Of a DNA stretch of 64,000 nt, positions 23,988-41,293 are shown in pieces. Positions within the stretch are counted from its first letter, which is position 1, and the number at the start of each line of letters is the position of its first letter. Below the pieces are notes generated by a model. That model was not told the DNA's origin. It searched no databases and saw only the letters and a program-made list of their open reading frames with translations. A program made the translations under genes and the position numbers. Source of the DNA: Streptomyces mobaraensis (GTDB lineage Bacteria > Actinomycetota > Actinomycetes > Streptomycetales > Streptomycetaceae); NCBI RefSeq assembly GCF_020099395.1, contig NZ_CP083590.1, positions 1,550,001-1,614,000 on the forward strand, written 5' to 3'.

Positions 23988-25229
23988 ATGCGGTGGAGCG
24001 ACTACAGCAACGGCGAGCGCATCAAGATCCTGCGGGGCAGGGACGTCAACCAGGCCGCTCTGGCCGAGATGACGGGCCTGTCCATCGCCACCATCCAGAA
24101 GGCTGAGCAGGACAAGCAGCTTTCGCTCAACACGCTCATGCAGATCGCCGACGCGCTGGGCGTGGACACGTCGGTCATCCTGGGGCAGCAGGCCCCGCGC
24201 CGGGCCATGGCACAGTCCGACCGAACGATGTTGCGAGCCCTCTCCCAGGCTGTGCACGACACCGCGGCCGGGATGCTCCCGGAGACCGCCGCCGGGAGCG
24301 ACGAACGCGCCCTGCGGGTGGCCATCGGCAAGTGCTGGGATCTCTACTGGCAGGGGCACTACACCAAGGCCGGCGCGCTGGTGGTGCCGGTTCTCGCCGA
24401 GGCTGCCGTCCACCTCGACGAACGTCCCGCCGGAAGCCAGGGCACCGCGTGGGGGCTCCTTGCCGACGCCTACAGGTTGGCGGCGTACGTCGCGAACCTG
24501 ATGGGGTCGCGCGACCTCGCCTACGCGGCGATCGGCCAGGCACAGGCAGCCGCGGAACGGTCGGACGACGAGTTGCGGCCCGCCCTCGTCAGGTCGGGCC
24601 GCGCCTGGGTGTACCTCCGCGACGCGCGGTTGGACGACGCGCTGCGTCTGGCCGAGAAGGCGGCGGTGGACATCGAGCCGCGGTTCTCGCGAGCGACCTC
24701 GGACCAGTTGACCGTCTACGGCTCGCACATCAATTTCGCGGCGGTCGTGGCCAGCCGCATGCAGAAGAAAGACCTGGTCAAGGGCTTCCTGTCTCTGGCG
24801 ACCGCGACGGGCGCCCGACTGGGCGCCGAACACCGCGCCCACGGCACGCTGTTCGGGCCGGTCACGGCCGACACGCAGGCGGTCGGCATCGCCGTGGCAC
24901 TCGGGCAGGCCGGCAAGGCCCTGGAGCTGGTCCGGGGCATCCCGGAGAACAGCCTGAGCGCCCTCACCGAGGCCGCGCGCAACCGCTTCGCGATGGACAA
25001 GGCCATGGCCCAGGCCGACGCCCGGCTGTGGGACGCCTCCCTCGACACGCTGGAAAAGGCCCTGATCCAAGCCCCCGTGTGGGCCCGCCACCAAGCACTG
25101 CCCAGCGTGATCGTCCAGAAGGTCGGACGGGCTTCGACAGCCCGCGTCCGCCGCGTATCGGCGCTGATCGGCGTACGCCCTGGCGTCGAGTCCGGCTTCG
25201 CCCGGGCAACGGCCAAGGCCGCGCCGTAG
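23988..25229 (+). CDS. XRE-type HTH regulator with TPR-like C-terminus (copy 1)
   Basis: 413 residues. HTH at ~8-65 (MTGLSIATIQKAEQDKQLSL, then TSVILGQQAPRR), followed by ~330 residues of helical repeats typical of TPR-type peptide- or protein-binding regulators. It is paralogous to the gene at 25438: the same ...LGQQAPR..., VEPRFSRA/IEPRFSRA and VWARHQALPSVI/EWVRHQALPGVI segments in the same order. A possible 9-bp hairpin (TCCCGGCCT/AGGCCGGGA, 23909-23942) lies upstream. Target genes and ligand unknown; divergence from the SLOG gene suggests local control. Confidence 0.85.
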   Translation: MRWSDYSNGERIKILRGRDVNQAALAEMTGLSIATIQKAEQDKQLSLNTLMQIADALGVDTSVILGQQAPRRAMAQSDRTMLRALSQAVHDTAAGMLPETAAGSDERALRVAIGKCWDLYWQGHYTKAGALVVPVLAEAAVHLDERPAGSQGTAWGLLADAYRLAAYVANLMGSRDLAYAAIGQAQAAAERSDDELRPALVRSGRAWVYLRDARLDDALRLAEKAAVDIEPRFSRATSDQLTVYGSHINFAAVVASRMQKKDLVKGFLSLATATGARLGAEHRAHGTLFGPVTADTQAVGIAVALGQAGKALELVRGIPENSLSALTEAARNRFAMDKAMAQADARLWDASLDTLEKALIQAPVWARHQALPSVIVQKVGRASTARVRRVSALIGVRPGVESGFARATAKAAP

Positions 25230-25289: not shown

Positions 25290-25437
25290 GCTGTTCAACG
25301 CCCGCACCGGACAGCCGAACCGACACGACCGTGATACTTCACCCACCCCAGCCGCTCCACTCTGAGCGCAGGCGCCGCGCCGCAATGCCTACCATCGGAC
25401 GGTAAGTCACCAAGTTCTCCGACCTCTTGGGGTGGCC

Positions 25438-26649
25438 ATGGCCAGTTGGGCGGATCTGACGACCGGCAAGCGGATCAAGGCCCTGCGCGGCTCCGACATG
25501 ACGCAACAGGGCCTCGCCGAGGCGGCCGGCGTCTCGTTGGCCCTGGTGCAGAAGGCGGAGCAGGACAAGGGGGACCTCTCCGTGGGCTCCCTGCTCAAGC
25601 TCGCCGCCGCGCTGCGCACGGACGTGTCTGTGCTGCTCGGCCAGCAGGCGCCGCGGCACGGAATGAACCGCGAGGACCGCACGGCGCTGCGGCGCCTCTC
25701 GGACGCCGTCCACGAAAGTGCGCTGGGAGACTGGGACGCGATCGAGGACCCGAGCGGCATCGCGGAACTCGCCCACGCTCGGGACGAGGCATGGGCCGCG
25801 TACTGGGCCGGTGACAACATCCACGTCAGCACGCTCGCCGCCAAGGTGCTTCTGGAAGGGCACGCCCGGTACGCGACCGCGACGGACGCCGAGCGGGAGC
25901 GGCTCGGGGCGATCCTGGCGAGTACCTACCGCGTGGCCGCGTCGTGTGCCAACGGGTTCGGGCAGCGTGATCTCGCCCTGGCGGCGCTGGTATCGGCGAA
26001 GCGGTGGGCCACCGCAGCCGACGATCCGGTGCTCCTCGCCCTCCTGGAGTCCACCTTGTCGTGGGTGCACCTCCGCAGCGCCAAGCTCCCGCGGGCCATG
26101 GCCGTCGCCGAGCGCGCCGCCCTGACTGTGGAGCCCAGGTTCAGCCGCGCGTCAGAGCCCGAACTGGTCGCCTACGGTCGGTTGATGATCTCCGCCGCGG
26201 TAGCCGCCTCCCGCCACGAGGACGAGGAATCGGCCCAGAACTACCTGTCACAGGCAACGGCGGCAGCCGCCCGTCTCGGCCGGGACGTGGACCTCTACGG
26301 CACGAGCTTCGGACCGACGGCGGCCAAGGCGGAGGCCGTGGGCGTCCACGTGGCGCTGAAGAACTTCGGGCGCGCGCTCAAGCTCGCCACGGAACCCGGG
26401 ATGCAGGGGCTTCCCCGCACCATGTCCATGGTGGCGAGGAACCGGTACAGGCTCGACGTGGCCCTCGCCCAATGTGCCGCAGGGCTCTACGACCAGGCCG
26501 GTGACACACTCATCGAGGTGGGACTCGAAGCACCCGAGTGGGTGCGGCACCAGGCTCTCCCCGGGGTGATCGGACGCCGTCTGGCGAAGGTCTCCTCAGC
26601 GAGGGTCCGCAGCATCAGTCAACTCATCGGCGTGCCCTTGATCGCGTGA
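25438..26649 (+). CDS. XRE-type HTH regulator with TPR-like C-terminus (copy 2)
   Basis: 403 residues, paralogue of the preceding gene (HTH GLAEAAGVSLALVQKAEQDK; SVLLGQQAPRHG; VEPRFSRASEPELVAYG). The two differ at many positions, so duplication is not recent. ATG 25438 has GGGG about 5 bases upstream; a GTG two codons earlier (25432) is an alternative. Followed by a hairpin that overlaps its stop and by three small co-directional genes. Probably senses a peptide or small molecule through the helical domain, by analogy with Rgg/PlcR-type architecture; this is inference. Confidence 0.85.
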   Translation: MASWADLTTGKRIKALRGSDMTQQGLAEAAGVSLALVQKAEQDKGDLSVGSLLKLAAALRTDVSVLLGQQAPRHGMNREDRTALRRLSDAVHESALGDWDAIEDPSGIAELAHARDEAWAAYWAGDNIHVSTLAAKVLLEGHARYATATDAERERLGAILASTYRVAASCANGFGQRDLALAALVSAKRWATAADDPVLLALLESTLSWVHLRSAKLPRAMAVAERAALTVEPRFSRASEPELVAYGRLMISAAVAASRHEDEESAQNYLSQATAAAARLGRDVDLYGTSFGPTAAKAEAVGVHVALKNFGRALKLATEPGMQGLPRTMSMVARNRYRLDVALAQCAAGLYDQAGDTLIEVGLEAPEWVRHQALPGVIGRRLAKVSSARVRSISQLIGVPLIA

Positions 26650-31594: not shown

Positions 31595-32389
31595 TCAGCG
31601 GCCCGAATCGGCCGCGCCCGCGAAGCGCCTCACGGCCCGGGGCCGGGCCGGACCGGCCCTGCGGGGCCTGGGCGCGGGCTCGGGCAGGCGGGCCAGTCTG
31701 CCGCTGATCAGCGACGCCGCGCGGCTCACGGCGTCGCACAGCGGGGGGATCAGCTTCGCGTCCAGGGCGGTCACCGCGATGGCGGCCACCACCTCGCCGG
31801 ACGCCGAGTGCACCGGAGCCGCCACGCACGACAGTGACTCCACGCACTGTTCGTAGTCGAACGCGAGCCTCCGCTCCCGGATCCGCGTGGCCTCACGCGC
31901 CCAGGCGGCCTCGGTCCAGCCGGCGGGCCGCTCCGGCGCCGGGGCGGCCGCCGCCAGGGCCAGTTCGGCCGCGCTGCCGGGTGGCAGGACGGCCCCGGAG
32001 CGCAGCGGGAAGACCTCGTCCACCTGGCCCCGCATGCCCCCGACGACGATGATGTGCCCGGCTTCGGGCACCGACAGGCTCAGGCTCGCCTCACCGCTGA
32101 CCGCCGCGAGATCCCGCAGCGGCTGGGCCGATGCGGCTCGCAGCGCGCGCGCCGGATGCCAGGCCTGCCCGAGCCGGAACGTGCGCGGGCCCAGCCGGTA
32201 GCGGCCTTCGTGACTCTGCACCGCGCCCAGTGCGACCAGCTGCCCGAGCAGCCGGTGGGCGGTGGCCTTCGGCAGCGCGGCGTCGCTCGCCAGCCGGGTC
32301 AGCCCCACCTCGTCGTCGTGCGCGAGTACCTCCATGAGTGCGAACGCGCCTTCCAGCACGCCGCGTCCCTCGGCGCCGGATCTCGCCAT
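31595..32389 (-). CDS. IclR-family regulator
   Basis: 264 residues: winged HTH (EVGLTRLASDAALPKATAHR) and an IclR ligand domain (VDEVFPLRSGAVLPPGSAAE, RRLAFDYEQCVESLSCVAAP). The C-terminal ~25 residues are basic and proline-rich. GAGGGGG precedes ATG 32389. It is transcribed away from the peptide operon at 32954, with 564 bases between; those bases contain tandem repeats and a perfect palindrome, so it may regulate the peptide operon. Effector unknown. Confidence 0.88.
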   Translation of the reverse strand: MARSGAEGRGVLEGAFALMEVLAHDDEVGLTRLASDAALPKATAHRLLGQLVALGAVQSHEGRYRLGPRTFRLGQAWHPARALRAASAQPLRDLAAVSGEASLSLSVPEAGHIIVVGGMRGQVDEVFPLRSGAVLPPGSAAELALAAAAPAPERPAGWTEAAWAREATRIRERRLAFDYEQCVESLSCVAAPVHSASGEVVAAIAVTALDAKLIPPLCDAVSRAASLISGRLARLPEPAPRPRRAGPARPRAVRRFAGAADSGR

Positions 32390-32570
32390 GAGGGTCCCCC
32401 TCTCATGCCGGGCCGTCGATCGGACGGCCCCGCAACTCCCCCGTTCGAACCCTTCCTCCTGGTGTTCGTCGACGAGGCGCGCCGCCCGTCCGGCTTGGCG
32501 GGCGGACCCATGTGGCAGCCGGGGCGACGTGCTTTCCGTGCCACAGCTGGTATGGGCCGTCGTTCCAGTC

Positions 32571-32818: not shown

Positions 32819-32839
32819 CCGGTCCGTTGAACGGACCGG
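32819..32839. promoter_or_regulatory. Perfect 21-bp palindrome upstream of the peptide gene
   Basis: Arms CCGGTCCGTT and AACGGACCGG around a single G, 115 bases before the peptide start. Probably an operator; it could also form a hairpin. The divergent IclR protein is a candidate ligand. Confidence 0.6.
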
Positions 32840-32953
32840 ATCATTGCCCGTGCGCAGTGATCGCGCCACTGTGTTACTCGTCAGGGGACGAAACGCCGGT
32901 GCTCCCAAGGGAGTCGGGCGGGCGTCCACGCACAGCGGACAGGGGAGGCACAT

Positions 32954-33043
32954 ATGAGCGCCATCAAGACGAGCGCGAAGCAGTTCAAGTACGTCATGGG
33001 CGCGATGACGGCTGTCTTCTTCGGCACGTGCTCGGCCAGCTGA
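32954..33043 (+). CDS. 29-residue hydrophobic peptide, putative ribosomal peptide precursor
   Basis: A gene of 29 codons with a strong ribosome site (AGGGGAGG, 5 bases before ATG). Residues 1-12 are basic and polar with three lysines (start MSAIKTSAKQFK); residues 13-24 are hydrophobic (YVMGAMTAVFFG); the C-terminus is TCSAS with a single Cys at 26. It could span a membrane once. Eleven bases after the stop comes a strong hairpin, then a PaaK-like adenylating enzyme and a presenilin-like membrane protein in the same direction. This layout (tiny gene, attenuator, enzymes) is typical of ribosomal peptide precursors. No family recognised. Modification and cleavage sites are unknown. Confidence 0.7.
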   Translation: MSAIKTSAKQFKYVMGAMTAVFFGTCSAS

Positions 33044-33054
33044 AGTAGACGCCG

Positions 33055-33084
33055 GGGGTGGGGGCGGTCCGCCGCCCCCACCCC
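33055..33084 (+). terminator. Attenuator hairpin between peptide and ligase genes
   Basis: A 13-bp perfect stem, GGGGTGGGGGCGG (33055-33067) with CCGCCCCCACCCC (33072-33084), loop TCCG, then TTCGTCCTGTTC. It lies 11 bases after the peptide stop and 33 before the ligase start; partial read-through would favour peptide mRNA. Confidence 0.8.
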
Positions 33085-33116
33085 TTCGTCCTGTTCGAGG
33101 TGCGAGGGAGGCATCA

Positions 33117-34529
33117 GTGCTGGAGACGGCTGTCCGGCAGGTGCGGGTGGCCACGGCCATGGTGTTCGGCCGGCGGCTGAGCGTACGGGCCGTGGAACGG
33201 CTGGTCGCCGACGCGCTCGCCACGCTGGAGGAGTTCGGCTCGCTCGGCGACGACGTCGACGAACTGGCCGACGGACCGTTCACCGATCCGGCCGAGCGCC
33301 GCGACCTGCAGAACCGGGCGCTCCAGCGCACCGTGCGCAGGCTCGCCGCCCGCTCGCCCTTCTACCGGGAACGGCTCGCCGGAGTGGACCCGTCCGGGAT
33401 CACGACCGAGACGCTCACCCGCATCCCGGTGACGCGCAAGGCCGACCTGATCGCCCGCCCCGCCGACTTCCTCTGCGGCAACCCGTACCTGGTGACGCAG
33501 ACCACCGGCACCACCGGCGCGCCGGTGCGGATCTGGCTCTCCCGCTACGAGATGGAGCTGTGGCCCGCCCTGATCGCGCTGTCCCTGGTGCTCCGCGGCG
33601 ACCTCGGCCCCGGCGACCGGATGCAGATCAACCTCAGCTCGCGGGCGACCGCCGCCGTGCAGGAGGACGTCGAGGTGTGCCGCCTCGCCAACGCCGCCTG
33701 TCACGTGGTGGGACAGGTCCCGCCCGAGGAGTCCGTCGAGCACCTGCTCGGCCGCTCCGGCCTCCGGCCTACGGTGCTCACCGGCAACCCCAGCTACCTC
33801 GCCCGCATGGTGCGCGTCGCCCGCGAACGCGGGTACGGGCCGCGGGACTTCGGGCTGCGCGCGGTCTACGCGGGAGGGGAGATGCTGTCCCGCAACCTGG
33901 CGGCCGCCTTCCGCGAGACCTTCGGCGCGCGCACCGTCGGCGACTCCTTCGGGATGACCGAGCTGCTGCCCGTCAGCGGCCGTACGTGTACCCACCATCA
34001 CCTGCACATCGACCCCACCATGGGGTACACGGAGGTCCTCGACCCGGAGACGGGCGAGCCCGCCGGGCCCGGCCGTCTCGGCGAGCTGACGGTCACCCCG
34101 TACTTCCCCTACCGGGAGTGCATGCCCGTCCTGCGGTACAACACCGGTGACCTGGTCCGCACCCTGGACGGCGAGCCCGCCTGCGAACTCGCCTCGGTCC
34201 CCGCGGTCTCCCACATCCTCGGCAAGGCCGGACAGCTGTACCGCACCGCCGACGCCGTCGTCACCCCGCGCGACCTCGTGGAGGCGCTGGACGGCACCCC
34301 CGGCCTGCCGTGGCCGCTGCGCCACCGGGCCGAGGTCACCGCCCGGGGCCGGCTGCGCGTGGAGGTCGTCTCCAAGGAACTCGGCGCGGCCGACGTGACC
34401 GAACGGCTGCGGGCCGAGGGCATCGACGCCGACGTCACCGTCCTGCCGCTGGACGACGCGGAAGCGGCGCTCCGCTTCCCGCTCCGCTGCGACCTGCTGG
34501 AGCACACCTTCACCCGGAGCCACGCATGA
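33117..34529 (+). CDS. PaaK-like adenylating enzyme (AMP-binding)
   Basis: 470 residues, resembling phenylacetate-CoA ligase and CapK-type proteins. N-terminal SPFYRERLAGVDP and LTRIPVTRKADLIARP are typical of PaaK; the ATP loop is TQTTGTTGAPVRIWLS (~125), then GDSFGMTELLPV (~280) and the ribose-binding RYNTGDLVRTL (~340). The usual C-terminal lysine loop (R-G-x-N-V-x-P) is replaced by KAGQLYRTADAVVTPRD, so thioesterification may differ. It should activate a carboxylate as acyl-AMP; the substrate may be an acyl group for the peptide or the peptide itself, which is inference. GTG 33117 has AGGGAGG 5 bases upstream. The stop overlaps the next ATG. Confidence 0.85.
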   Translation: MLETAVRQVRVATAMVFGRRLSVRAVERLVADALATLEEFGSLGDDVDELADGPFTDPAERRDLQNRALQRTVRRLAARSPFYRERLAGVDPSGITTETLTRIPVTRKADLIARPADFLCGNPYLVTQTTGTTGAPVRIWLSRYEMELWPALIALSLVLRGDLGPGDRMQINLSSRATAAVQEDVEVCRLANAACHVVGQVPPEESVEHLLGRSGLRPTVLTGNPSYLARMVRVARERGYGPRDFGLRAVYAGGEMLSRNLAAAFRETFGARTVGDSFGMTELLPVSGRTCTHHHLHIDPTMGYTEVLDPETGEPAGPGRLGELTVTPYFPYRECMPVLRYNTGDLVRTLDGEPACELASVPAVSHILGKAGQLYRTADAVVTPRDLVEALDGTPGLPWPLRHRAEVTARGRLRVEVVSKELGAADVTERLRAEGIDADVTVLPLDDAEAALRFPLRCDLLEHTFTRSHA

Positions 34530-35449
34530 CGGTCTTCTTCCAACTCGCGGTCAGCTGCGCCCTGGCGCTCGCGGTGTGCGCCGGCGCCGTCGGCTACTTC
34601 CGCGCCGTCCGCACCCCCCGGCCGCCGGTCGGCGTCTTCAACGGCGCCGACATCTTCGTGATGATGGGCTTCGTCCTGGCACTGCCGTACCTCTACCTGG
34701 CGCTGCCCGGTGCGGTCCTGCCGGCGGTGCTCGCGGTGGCCTTCGCGGGCGGGCTGTCCGTCGGCTACCAGCCCGTCATCGGCGACGGAAGGCTGCGCTG
34801 GGCGCTGATCGCCGCGCTGATCGCGGCCGTGCTCGGCACCCACCTCGCCTTCGGCGACACCGCCGCGCCGTACTGGATCGCCAACAGCTGCGTCGTCGGC
34901 CTGGTCGTCGTCTCCGCCACCAACATCAGCGTCCAGGGCGGGATGCGGCTGAGGAACGTCGCGTGGTTCCTGCTCGCGCTCACCGCCTACGACGCGTTCT
35001 TCGCCTGGGTCGTCCCCCTGACCGAGGAGCTGTCCGACGCGGTCCAGGGCTACCCCTTCGCCCCCGCGGCCGGGCTGCGCGTCGGGGACGACCTCGGCGC
35101 CGTGCTCGGCATGGGCGATCTGCTGGCCTACGCCCTCTTCACCACCGCCGCCTACAAGGCGTACGGGAAGGCGGGGCTGCGCACCGGCATCGTCCTGGTC
35201 GTGCTCTTCGGCGCGGTGGCCCCGGTGGCCGCCCTGCACATCGTCGGCGCGGTCACCGGGCACGCCGCGACGCTGATCCCGGCCCAGGTCTTCTTCGGCC
35301 CGGCGGCCTTCACCGGCCACCTGCTCCTGCGCCGCCGGGGCCCGGAGCGGCGGATGGCCGAACTCGCGTTCCGCCGCGACCGGATCGGAGCCCCGGGGGC
35401 GGCGGCCGGCCCGCGCCACGGGCAGGAGGCGGCCCGGCTCCTCGGCTGA
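34526..35449 (+). CDS. Nine-helix membrane protein with presenilin/SPP-type motifs
   Basis: 307 residues, about nine membrane segments (approximately 3-24, 41-60, 62-80, 91-108, 116-135, 146-164, 189-208, 220-242, 248-268), then a basic cytoplasmic tail. Helix 6 has LTAYDAFFAW (Y155, D156), helix 7 has LGMGDLLAYA (G195-x-G-D198), and helix 9 has LIPAQVFFG (P252-A-Q). These match in order and spacing the YD, GxGD and PAL motifs of intramembrane aspartyl proteases (presenilin, signal peptide peptidase); the third reads PAQ rather than PAL. If active it would cut a membrane-spanning substrate, and the hydrophobic peptide encoded two genes upstream is an obvious candidate. ATGA overlap with the ligase. 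Function inferred. Confidence 0.75.
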   Translation: MTVFFQLAVSCALALAVCAGAVGYFRAVRTPRPPVGVFNGADIFVMMGFVLALPYLYLALPGAVLPAVLAVAFAGGLSVGYQPVIGDGRLRWALIAALIAAVLGTHLAFGDTAAPYWIANSCVVGLVVVSATNISVQGGMRLRNVAWFLLALTAYDAFFAWVVPLTEELSDAVQGYPFAPAAGLRVGDDLGAVLGMGDLLAYALFTTAAYKAYGKAGLRTGIVLVVLFGAVAPVAALHIVGAVTGHAATLIPAQVFFGPAAFTGHLLLRRRGPERRMAELAFRRDRIGAPGAAAGPRHGQEAARLLG

Positions 35450-37399: not shown

Positions 37400-40300
37400 A
37401 TGACGCGCATGCTTCAGCAGCGAGAATCGGTCGCGCTCATCGGTATCGGCTGCCGGTTCCCCGGCGGCATCGACTCCCCGGAATCGTTCTGGAATTTCCT
37501 CTCCGGCGGCAAGGTGTCCGTCGAACCCACCCCCGAGGACCGCTGGCGTCCCTACACGAAGATCAGCCCGGAGTTCTCCGAGGCTTTGCGCCGCGCCGAC
37601 CGGCCGGGCAACTTCATCGGCGACGTCGACGGTTTCGACGCCGAGTTCTTCGGCATCACGCCGCGCGAGGCGGAGTTCATGGACCCGCAGCAGCGGCTCG
37701 TCCTCGAAGTGGCGTGGGAGGCGCTGGAGCACGCCGGCATGGCGCCGCGCTCGGTGGCGGGCTCCGACGCCGGCGTCTACATCGGCACCTGCTCCGACGA
37801 CTACGGGCGGCGGTTACTGGAAGACCTGCCCCGCATCGAGCCGTGGACGGGCATCGGCGCCCAGCTCACCGGCATCGCCAACCGCGTCTCGCACGTCCTC
37901 GACCTGCACGGCCCCAGCTTCGTCCTGGACTCCGCCTGCTCGGCGTCGCTGGTGGCGGTGCACCTGGCCTGCCAGTCGCTGCTCACCGGCGAGACGTCCC
38001 TCGCCCTGGCCGGCGGCGTCAACATCATCCTCTCGCCCGCGTACACCCTCACCCTGGAGGCGGCCGGTGCCCTCTCCCCCGACGGCCGCAGCAAGCCGTT
38101 CGACGCGGAGGGCGACGGCTACGGGCGCGCCGAGGGCTGCGGCGTCCTGGTGCTCAAGCGGCTGGCGGACGCCGAGCGGGACGGCGACCGGATCCTCGCC
38201 GTGATCCGCGGCTCGGCCGTCGCCCAGGACGGCGCGACCAACGGCATCATGGCCCCCAACCCCGACGCCCAGCGCGACCTGCTCCGCCTCGCCTGGCGGC
38301 AGGCGGGCCTGGACCCGGCCACCGCCGGCTACATCGAGGCGCACGGCACCGGCACCCGGCTCGGCGACCCGGTCGAGGCGTCCGGCCTGCACGCGGTGTT
38401 CGGCACCGGGCGGCCGGACGGCAAGCCGTGCTGGATCGGCTCGGTGAAGTCCAACATCGGCCACGCCGAACCCGCTTCGGGCGTCGCCGGGATCATCAAG
38501 GCCACGCTGATGCTCCGCGAGGCGGAGCTGGCGGCGACGGTCCTGACCAGCGAGCCGAGCCCCGACATCCCCTGGGACGACTGGGGGCTGCGGCTGGTCA
38601 CCGAGCACCAGCCGTGGCCGAAGGGCGACACCCCGCGCCGGGCCGGCGTCTCCGGGTACGGGTACGGCGGCACCATCGGGCACATCGTCCTGGAGGAGGC
38701 GCCCGCCGCCGACGAGGAGCCGGTCGCGGAACCGGAGGGCGGCGCCGTCCGCGCGTACCCCCTCTCGTACCGCTCCCGCGCCGGGATCACCGCCTACGCG
38801 GCCCGCCTCGCCGACTGGCTGGAGCAGCACCCGGGCACCCCGCTCTCCGCCGTCGGCCACACCCTCGCCACCCGCCGCAGCCACCTGGAGCACCGGGCGA
38901 CCGTCGTCGCCGACGGCCGCGCCGAACTCGTTTCCCTGTTACGGGAGTTGGCGGCTGACGAGACCGGGGAGCGGCAGCTTGACGGTGTCGTCACCGGTGC
39001 CGTACCGCCCGGGGGCGCGGCGGACACCGGGACGGTGTGGGTGTTCTCAGGGCACGGCTCGCACTGGCCGGGGATGGGGGCCGAACTGCTGGCCGAGCGT
39101 GCCGAGTTCGCGGCTGTCATCGACGCGCTGGAGCCCGTGTTCCGGGAGGAGCTGGGCTTCTCGGCCCGGCAGGCCCTGCTGGACGGCGACTTCGACTCCG
39201 TCGACCGTGCCCAGTCCATGATCTTCGCGATGCAGGTGGGCCTCGCCGAGGTGTGGCGGGCGCACGGGCACCGGCCGTCGGCCGTCATCGGGCACTCGGT
39301 GGGCGAGATCGCCGCGGCCGTGGTGGCCGGGGCGCTGAGCCTGGAGGACGGCGCCCGGCTCAGCGGCCGGCGGTCGGCGCTGCTGCGCCGGGTGGCGGGC
39401 CGGGGCGCGATGGCCATGGTCGGGCTGCCCTTCGACGAGGTGGCGGCGCGGCTCGCGGACGACGGGCGGATCTCGGCCGCCATCGCGTCGTCGCCGCTGT
39501 CGTCGGTGGTCTCCGGCGACGCCGAGGCCGTGGCGGAGCTGGTCCGCGACTGGCAGGCGGAGGGCCTGCCGGTACGGAACGTCAACTCCGACGTCGCCTT
39601 CCACAGCCGGCACATGCTGGAGCTCACGGACGGCCTGCGCGACGCCCTTCAGAAACTTGCCCCACGCGCCCCGGAGGTACCGCTCTACACCACGGCCCTC
39701 GCCGACCCCCGCTCCGACGCCCCGCACGACGCCGCGTACTGGGTGACCAACCTGCGTGAACCGGTCCGGCTCGCGCAGGCGGTGACCGCGGCCGTCGAGG
39801 ACGGGTACCGTCGCTTCCTGGAGGTCTCGCCACATCCGGTCGTCTCCCACTCGATCGGCGAGACGCTGGCCCATCTGGACGTCACCGGCGCGCACATCGG
39901 CCACAGCCTCCGCCGCGACAAGCCCGAAGTGCGGACGCTGCTCGGCCAGTTGGGCGGGCTGCACGCCCACGGCGCCGAGATCGACTGGTCGCTCCACCAC
40001 CCGGCCGGGCCCCCGGCGGAGCTGCCCCCGGTCGTCTGGCAGCACCGCAGGCACTGGCTCGACGCCGTGCTGCCGGCCGCCGCGGCCGTCTCCCACCAGC
40101 ACGACATCAGCGGTCACACCCTGCTCGGCGCCCCCGTGGACCTCGCCACCACCAACGGCACCGCGCTACGGCTATGGAACACCGTCCTGGACGAGGCCAG
40201 CCGCCCCTTCCCCGGCGGGCACTCCCTGCACGGCGCCTCGATCGTCCCCGCCTCCTCGATCATCCACACCTTCCTGGAGGCCGCCCCGGGCGTCGGCGGC

Positions 40301-41293
40301 AGCAAGGCGCTGTTCGACCTCTCGCTGCGCTTCCCCATCGCTCTCGCCTCGGCACGCGAGGTGCAGGTGGTACGGGAGGGGCTGGAACTGCGGCTCAGCA
40401 CCCGGGCCGTGGGCGCGAAGGGCGGCCCGGGCAACTGGCTGACGCACACGTCCGGTTCGACCCTGGCCGACAGCGCCGTACCGTTCCCGGACGCCTTCCT
40501 GACCGTACGCGCCCCGGACGGTCTGGTGACCGCCGACCCGTCGGTGGTGATCGGCCGGCTGGACGCGATCGGCGTCGAGGGGATCGCCTGGCCGTGGGAG
40601 GTGCGCGAACTCCTCCAGGGCGAGAACGTGCTGCGGGCCGTGATCCACGCCCCCGCCGTACCGGGCGACCAGGTCACCTGGGCGCCGCTGCTGGACGCGG
40701 CCCTCGGCGTCGTCCCCGTCATCTACGGCGGGCCGCCCACCGTCCGGATGCCCGCCCACATCCGCGAGGTGCGCGTGGTGGGCGAGGCACCCGAGACCGG
40801 TGTGGTGGACATCCGGCTCGTCGACCCGGAGACGGACACCGTCGACATCGTCATCAGCGACGAGAGCGGGCGGCTGTGCGCCTGGCTGCCGGGGACGCGG
40901 TTCGGCGCCCTGCGCTCGGAGGCGCCGGCCGGGCGCGCGGCGGAGGCGGAGCCCACCGCCGGGCCGGACGAGCCGGCCGCCGTCGATTGGGCGTCCCTGC
41001 CGGCCGACGCCCTCGCCGCCCGGATCGACGAGGAGGTCTGCGGACGACTGGCCCGCGAGATGAAGATCCCGGCGGCGGAGCTGGACCGCGACCGGCCGCT
41101 GACCGATCTGGGGCTGGACTCGGTGATGTCGATGGTCGTCTGCGGGCAGCTGGAGAAGCTGCTCGGGATCCGGCTGCCGGTCACCGTCCTGTGGAACCAC
41201 CCGACGGCGGGGGGCCTCGCGGCGTACGTGGCCGGGCAGTTGGGCGCGCGGGAGGAGAGGCAGGAGGAGGAACAGGAGGTGGCGGCGGCGTAA
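37400..41293 (+). CDS. Iterative type I PKS, orsellinate-synthase type (KS-AT-DH-ACP)
   Basis: 1297 residues. KS ~8-430: active Cys180 in [13 protein letters not shown], His ~315 in [12 protein letters not shown], His ~355 in [12 protein letters not shown] ~540-840: [22 protein letters not shown] (Ser ~633), and VAFHSRHM, indicating malonyl-CoA. DH-type fold ~895-1150 with [10 protein letters not shown] (His ~941, HxxxGxxxxP). ACP ~1215-1285: LGLDSVMS (Ser ~1240). No KR, ER or thioesterase. Size and order match bacterial orsellinic acid synthases such as AviM and CalO5, so four malonyl units giving orsellinate or a related resorcylate is the likely product. No tailoring or KAS III transfer gene is adjacent. 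Start ATG 37400 or 37409, neither with a strong ribosome site. Confidence 0.88.

What the first reader, a model, noticed from the sequence alone, without database searches (positions are those of the whole stretch)
32954..35449. Peptide, adenylating enzyme and presenilin-like protease operon: candidate new peptide-signal or peptide-natural-product system
Seen: three co-directional genes. First a 29-codon hydrophobic peptide gene with a very strong ribosome site, then a 13-bp hairpin, then a PaaK-like AMP-forming enzyme whose stop overlaps the start of a nine-helix protein carrying YD, GxGD and PAL-like motifs. Known: tiny gene plus attenuator plus enzymes is the usual layout for ribosomal peptides; GxGD proteases cut single-pass membrane segments. 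Inference: the ligase activates a carboxylate (a fatty or aryl acid for the peptide, or the peptide C-terminus) and the protease releases the modified peptide from the membrane. I know of no described bacterial system with this set.
Basis: partly seen in the sequence, partly recalled or inferred. Interest (0 to 1): 0.93.

Follow-up and report, generated by a model that had tools for sequence, protein, structure and literature searches.

The report
Tiny peptide with presenilin-like protease
Some soil actinobacteria carry a compact three-gene unit, a 22-31 residue membrane peptide, an ATP-using ligase-like enzyme and a membrane protein with the fold of the human Alzheimer's-linked protease presenilin, inherited together, which looks like an undescribed way of making or releasing a small peptide signal or compound.

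Summary

Of 54 loci, 50 have the peptide just upstream of the ligase, including 5 of 5 held-out loci (one recognised only by eye); 1 is cut by a contig end, 3 are decayed. Peptides share K/R-Y-x2-G/S-x-L/M...F and variable 3-8 residue tails. A hairpin follows them, with unrelated sequence in different clades.

Best reading: an SPP-type protease dedicated to a co-encoded micropeptide, with a PaaK-like partner that modifies it; product and role unknown. I found no such bacterial system in the open-access papers searched.

The parts
32819..32839 (.). 21-bp perfect palindrome CCGGTCCGTTGAACGGACCGG, possible operator of the divergent IclR-type regulator (inference)
   Evidence: 10-bp arms in the window; its left half GGTCCGTTGA found 133-136 bp before the peptide start in 12 of the 13 closest Streptomyces loci scanned (not L108), in 0 of 12 loci scanned from other clades
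31595..32389 (-). IclR-type regulator gene, divergent
   Evidence: Pfam HTH_IclR and IclR_C; homologue at the same place in the 10 loci of this Streptomyces clade that were clustered, window included
32942..32948 (+). strong Shine-Dalgarno sequence of the peptide gene (GGGGAGG)
   Evidence: Sequence; purine-rich sites such as AAGGAGG, GGGGAGG or AAGGGAG before the peptide start in the relatives
32954..33043 (+). 29-aa membrane peptide gene (stop included)
   Evidence: present in 50 of 54 loci; median dN/dS 0.25 among 18 close peptides
33054..33085 (+). RNA hairpin after the peptide stop (14 pairs), probable attenuator or stability element (inference)
   Evidence: in 45 loci the 78 nt from the peptide stop fold at -35 to -65 kcal/mol (z <= -2 in 36 of 45), with unrelated stem sequences between clades
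33117..34529 (+). PaaK-like AMP-ligase gene (470 aa, GTG start)
34526..35449 (+). presenilin/SPP-fold nine-helix membrane protein gene (307 aa)

Best explanation
A self-contained peptide-processing module. SHOWN (sequence or computed): a 22-31 residue peptide with basic N-terminus and uncharged or nearly uncharged C-terminal stretch; a stable stem-loop region right after its stop; a PaaK-fold enzyme; a presenilin/SPP-fold protein with both catalytic Asp invariant; the three inherited together. INFERRED: the peptide is made in excess of the two enzymes and inserts N-in into the membrane. The SPP-oriented intramembrane protease (N-out, C-in by charge) cuts it in or near the ...F-tail stretch and frees a short C-terminal piece to the outside or an N-terminal piece to the cytosol. 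The PaaK-like enzyme, which keeps the ATP site but not the A10 lysine, joins a small acid or amine to the peptide (before or after cleavage), and the product works as a secreted signal or small natural product under control of a neighbouring IclR or SARP/AfsR-type regulator. My estimates: the module is real 0.97; aspartyl intramembrane protease 0.9; peptide is its substrate 0.75; ligase acts covalently on the peptide 0.5; product is a signal or natural product 0.4.
Against: No activity data. The stretch after the last Lys/Arg (about 15-19 residues) is short for a full membrane span. The PAL motif is PAQ/PSQ/PVQ in one clade and PLL-like in the other, not PAL. The A10 lysine of adenylating enzymes is absent, so ligase chemistry is doubtful. 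Clustering showed no exporter or receptor gene shared across the loci. Lysine is not conserved as an acceptor (none in L095/L096). Hairpin z is weaker than -2 in 9 of 45 loci.
Confidence: 0.5

Rival explanations
1. Carrier-peptide pathway: the micropeptide is a scaffold. The ligase adds a small amine or amino acid at its C-terminus (or activates that carboxylate), and the membrane protease clips off the finished small molecule, as in the 3-thiaglutamate (TglA/TglB/TglG) logic.
For: Published precedent for a ribosomal scaffold peptide with C-terminal amino-acid addition and a membrane protease that releases the C-terminal residue (passages of PMC10885120; listing with abstract starts). The hairpin and strong ribosome site suggest excess peptide. 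Non-CoA PaaK relatives are close in fold (NatL2, ClxA, AjiA1), and NatL2 makes an ester (passages).
Against: The C-terminal residues are the most variable part of the peptide; a C-terminal ligation scaffold should keep them. No further tailoring enzyme is shared across the loci clustered.
Confidence: 0.15
2. Leader-peptide attenuator: the ORF senses translation or an effector, and the hairpin controls expression of ligase and protease.
For: Short conserved ORF followed by a stable fold in 45 loci, z <= -2 in 36; T-run after the stem in L004, L007 and L008.
Against: Most stems lack a T-run as read; distance from the conserved Phe to the stop varies from 3 to 8 codons; the conserved part is a basic-hydrophobic membrane-like segment; the operon encodes an intramembrane protease, which needs such a substrate.
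Confidence: 0.12
3. Toxin-antitoxin-like pair: the peptide is a membrane-active toxin and the presenilin-like protease (with the ligase) inactivates it.
For: Small basic-hydrophobic peptide; in E. coli the intramembrane protease RseP degrades small membrane proteins and counters HokB (PMC10470546, listing and abstract start only). Patchy distribution and plasmid copies.
Against: No PADLOC match for ligase or protease. A PaaK-like enzyme has no obvious place. Neutral: decayed loci have lost the peptide side while keeping protease remnants, which would also fit a toxin lost first.
Confidence: 0.08
4. The peptide is a stoichiometric small subunit or membrane anchor of the ligase-protease complex, not a substrate.
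For: Close co-occurrence and conserved core; human gamma-secretase has small subunits (general knowledge).
Against: Expression layout (strong ribosome site, hairpin) suggests unequal amounts; the tail varies; SPP does not require additional proteins (PMC2947513 passage).
Confidence: 0.1

Closest known systems
Signal peptide peptidase / SPPL and presenilin (GxGD intramembrane aspartyl proteases), archaeal PSH (MCMJR1)
   Same: Nine-helix fold, YD and GxGD at the equivalent places, two short strands before the GxGD helix, SPP-like orientation by charge
   Different: No sequence-family match; PAQ or PLL-like in place of PAL; bacterial; encoded with one dedicated micropeptide and a ligase
PaaK family of AMP-ligases: PaaK1, 2-HIB-CoA ligase, NatL2, AjiA1, ClxA
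   Different: Extra N-terminal helices relative to PaaK1; A10 lysine missing, invariant Glu462 at the place of NatL2 Lys418 (pairing inferred)
Daptide (MpaP) and epipeptide (EpeP) ribosomal peptide clusters
   Same: Short hydrophobic ribosomal peptide, tailoring enzyme(s), intramembrane protease (passages)
   Different: Their protease is a site-2 metalloprotease (daptide: RRE-fused S2P; epipeptide: M50); the other enzymes differ
3-Thiaglutamate carrier-peptide pathway (TglA/TglB/TglG)
   Same: Small ribosomal peptide, a ligase, a membrane protease
   Different: tRNA-dependent ligation and an M50 protease; 50-residue scaffold

Membership tests
Presenilin/SPP (GxGD intramembrane aspartyl proteases) | YD motif in TM6 and GxGD in TM7 with both Asp | tested here: met
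   Invariant in 44 of 44 aligned sequences, window included; 5 of 49 (L097, L105, L106, L113, L121) left out as cut or decayed
Presenilin/SPP (GxGD intramembrane aspartyl proteases) | nine-helix presenilin fold | tested here: met
Presenilin/SPP (GxGD intramembrane aspartyl proteases) | PAL motif in TM9 | tested here: inconclusive
   Pro252 in 90% or more; followed by AQ/SQ/VQ or LL and the like, not AL
Presenilin/SPP (GxGD intramembrane aspartyl proteases) | sequence match to a curated family or solved chain (supporting, not defining) | tested here: not met
   No Pfam or NCBIfam match above its cut-off, no PDB chain by profile at E <= 10
Presenilin/SPP (GxGD intramembrane aspartyl proteases) | cleaves a transmembrane peptide | not testable with these tools
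   Needs experiment
PaaK-like ANL adenylating enzymes | ANL fold with P-loop and A5/A7 motifs | tested here: met
PaaK-like ANL adenylating enzymes | A10 catalytic lysine | tested here: not met
   K108 is the only invariant Lys in 46 sequences; Glu462 invariant at the place of NatL2 Lys418/AjiA1 418; so I do not file it as a working acyl-CoA ligase
RiPP biosynthesis | gene-encoded precursor-like peptide beside enzymes | tested here: met
   50 of 54 loci
RiPP biosynthesis | post-translational modification of the peptide | not testable with these tools
   No mass data
Daptides / epipeptides / 3-thiaGlu carriers | S2P (M50) metalloprotease | tested here: not met
   The unit's protease has the aspartyl presenilin fold instead
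Leader-peptide attenuators | fixed spacing of conserved residues to the stop | tested here: not met
   3-8 codons between the conserved Phe and the stop
Leader-peptide attenuators | terminator-like stem with T-run | tested here: inconclusive
   Stable fold after the stop in 45 loci; T-run seen only in L004, L007, L008
Known defence systems (PADLOC) | match to a PADLOC model | tested here: not met
   0 families for ligase and protease of the window and of L117

The most novel reading that the evidence does not exclude
A previously undescribed bacterial clade of SPP/presenilin proteases, each paired with one cognate micropeptide and an altered PaaK enzyme. Together they make a new class of ribosomal peptide hormone or natural product: the ligase's lost catalytic lysine is made up by, or replaced by chemistry on, the peptide itself, and intramembrane aspartyl proteolysis frees a clade-specific 3-8 residue tail or acyl-peptide as the signal.
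Probability: 0.3. Interest if true: 0.96.

Novelty: categorically new. Interest (0 to 1): 0.88.

Why it matters
It gives bacteria a presenilin/SPP-fold protease with an obvious, tiny, co-encoded candidate substrate. That makes intramembrane aspartyl proteolysis testable in a simple genetic host and could offer a minimal model for gamma-secretase and SPP chemistry. It also points to a kind of peptide pathway that tools looking for known peptide-product classes may pass over: in the one annotated record read, the genes are only 'phenylacetate--CoA ligase family protein' and 'hypothetical protein', and no peptide gene is listed (that collection's gene table is incomplete). If the peptide turns out to be a RiPP-type precursor, the rating drops to a new variant of a known kind.

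Tried and rejected
Ligase N-terminal helix as a copy of the peptide: looked striking by eye (RQFRLALGM against KQFKYVMGAM) but best-window rank 1 in 9 of 45 against a shuffled mean of 6.0 and maximum 13; rejected. Known families: Pfam DUF4400 (E 0.028) and NCBIfam TafF (E 0.22) hits for the protease are below their cut-offs. PHROGs and PADLOC gave nothing for ligase or protease; Rfam gave one match below its gathering score, outside the unit at 32434-32512. BFVD's only match to the protease model at E <= 0.001 was a viral signal peptide peptidase. A wider net: 1 of 394 genomes of the class (the window's own) and 3 of 346 of the phylum (own plus two matches of 21-23 bits that I take as chance). 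PaaK paralogues for the A10 comparison: only 3 of 12 came out in the right frame; L028 and L037 show RSxGK. I read A10 from the AjiA1 alignment and the NatL2 paper passage instead; the exact residue pairing at Glu462 is inference, the absence of an invariant C-terminal Lys is not.

The peptide motif was written after seeing the first loci; the 5 held-out loci are the fair test: 4 of 5 by the fixed pattern, the fifth (L130, Leu in place of Tyr) only by eye. The hairpin z-scores use 60 shuffles; 9 of 45 are weaker than -2. Rows dropped before counts: L097, L105, L106, L113, L121 from the 44 protease sequences; L105 and L113 from the 46 ligases.

Full report
WHAT IS THERE. The peptide gene (32954-33043) encodes MSAIKTSAKQFKYVMGAMTAVFFGTCSAS behind GGGGAGG. 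A 14-pair hairpin (33054-33085) starts 10 nt after its stop. The ligase (33117-34529) is an AMP-binding enzyme, and its stop overlaps the start of the 307-aa membrane protein (34526-35449). A divergent IclR-type gene lies upstream, with a 21-bp palindrome between.

THE PEPTIDE. Thirteen relatives came from genome contigs, then 35 further regions from two genome samples. The ligase lies directly upstream of the protease gene in 34 of those 35, two of them truncated. The peptide ORF stands just before the ligase in 45 of the 49 loci (window included); L003 is cut by its contig end; L105, L113 and L121 lack it. Those three have a ligase cut at the 5' side or missing, and a protease gene that is split between frames or partial. 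As the motif was written after the first loci, I took five fresh ones: three plasmid loci and two from relatives. The fixed pattern found the peptide in 4 of 5; the fifth, L130, has MLKQYVKLAVSTIGAAMFAQNY at the right place with a Shine-Dalgarno-like sequence, seen by eye. So 50 of 54 in all, that is, every locus that could be tested and was not decayed. The pattern scanned 715,327 bases in six frames and gave 45 hits, none elsewhere. Lengths are 22 to 31 aa. The shared core is K/R-Y-x2-G/S-x-L/M-x3-hydrophobic-F; in a 20-row alignment Tyr13 and Phe23 are invariant, though L130, not in it, has Leu for the Tyr. The tail after Phe is 3-8 residues and varies most: in 18 close peptides of 29 aa, positions 10-23 hold at least 7 amino-acid changes, the 6-residue tail at least 14, yet Cys26 and Ser29 are fixed there; median dN/dS 0.25 over the pairs with dS above 0.

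THE HAIRPIN. In 45 loci the 78 nt from the peptide stop fold at -35 to -65 kcal/mol; z is -2 or lower in 36 of 45, weaker in 9. The stem sequence is unrelated between clades (for example GGGGTGGGGGCGG, GTGCGGGGAGG, GGTCGGCCGGTC, GCCTGGACCGGG), and its exact start varies, so a structure rather than a sequence is kept. A run of four or more T follows in L004, L007 and L008. I read it as a device for making more peptide than enzyme; that is inference.

ONE UNIT. Over 44 loci the ligase and protease distance matrices correlate at 0.968, 0 of 2000 permutations as high, and both trees show the same main clades. In two draws of 295 Streptomyces genomes, whose listed handles agree, 19 have the protease gene and 18 the ligase at E <= 1e-50; the 18 are shared, and the 19th (G717) is the remnant L121. 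The unit is patchy: 19 of 295 Streptomyces, 20 of 297 in the family of G394, which holds the Streptosporangiaceae MAG of L013, 6 of 61 relatives, and only the window's own genome in a class sample of 394. A protein search with profile A1 gave 674 relatives, 120 listed; one with profile A4 gave 117, including Kitasatospora, Embleya, Streptacidiphilus, Sphaerisporangium, Micromonospora, Actinacidiphila and an Acidimicrobiales MAG. Both scored a capped set of candidates, and I read neighbourhoods only for the 54 loci.

NEIGHBOURS. In the 45 loci clustered, no gene outside the unit is shared by more than 12. An IclR-type gene is divergent in the window's clade. Large regulators lie beside 11 loci; the two scanned, L095 and L103, have BTAD, NB-ARC and TPR domains of the AfsR/SARP kind, the other nine are grouped by BLAST only. 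Six Streptosporangiaceae-type loci (L013, L014, L087, L093, L094, L106) have a small anchored protein with cupredoxin-like His, Cys and Met just before the peptide gene; Pfam does not recognise it, so the name rests on its look and on the P0219 fusion.

HOW IT WORKS. The protease needs a membrane-inserted substrate, and the operon supplies one short peptide with N-in charge, in keeping with an SPP-oriented enzyme. I therefore take the peptide as the substrate (0.75). That the ligase acts on the peptide is the natural reading of their pairing but is unproven (0.5). Variable tails partly fixed within clades would suit a pheromone; SARP-type neighbours would suit a natural product.

KNOWN OR NEW. 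Daptides and epipeptides pair a ribosomal peptide with an intramembrane protease, but a site-2 metalloprotease (passages of PMC10036551; passages of PMC10885120). The 3-thiaglutamate route is the nearest carrier-peptide logic (passages; listing and abstract starts). A 2025 review of membrane proteases (PMC12067869, passages) treats presenilin through gamma-secretase and the archaeal PSH; its bacterial section, as seen in those passages, concerns SPase I and LspA. Searches showed, in their listings, no bacterial presenilin-fold system with a peptide and a ligase; they cover open-access papers only and each lists its best rows.

Noticed in passing
P0219 (metagenome protein, 422 aa): Presenilin-fold relative fused to a Pfam-recognised cupredoxin domain at its C-terminus; suggests an extracellular copper protein as a fourth partner in one clade.
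   Followed up: partly
L013, L014, L087, L093, L094, L106, directly upstream of the peptide gene: Small membrane-anchored cupredoxin-like protein (invariant His64, Cys110, Met116 in alignment A6) in these six loci; no Pfam hit.
   Followed up: partly
L105, L113, L121: Three decayed operons: 5' side with the peptide and ligase start gone, protease gene split between frames or partial.
   Followed up: yes
NZ_CP108387.1, NZ_CP109493.1 (Streptomyces) and NZ_CP108777.1 (Embleya): The unit sits on linear plasmids in three strains, so it may move.
   Followed up: partly
window 32819-32839: Perfect 21-bp palindrome between the IclR-type gene and the peptide gene; its left half is found in 12 of the 13 closest Streptomyces loci scanned.
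   Followed up: partly
window 23988-25229 and 25432-26649: Two neighbouring, related genes of 413 and 405 aa (helix-turn-helix by look, not scanned), also clustered with genes in L002 and L108.
   Followed up: no
window 37400-41293: Single-module polyketide synthase gene (ketosynthase, acyltransferase, dehydratase, carrier domains) downstream; it clustered with no gene of the other loci read.
   Followed up: no
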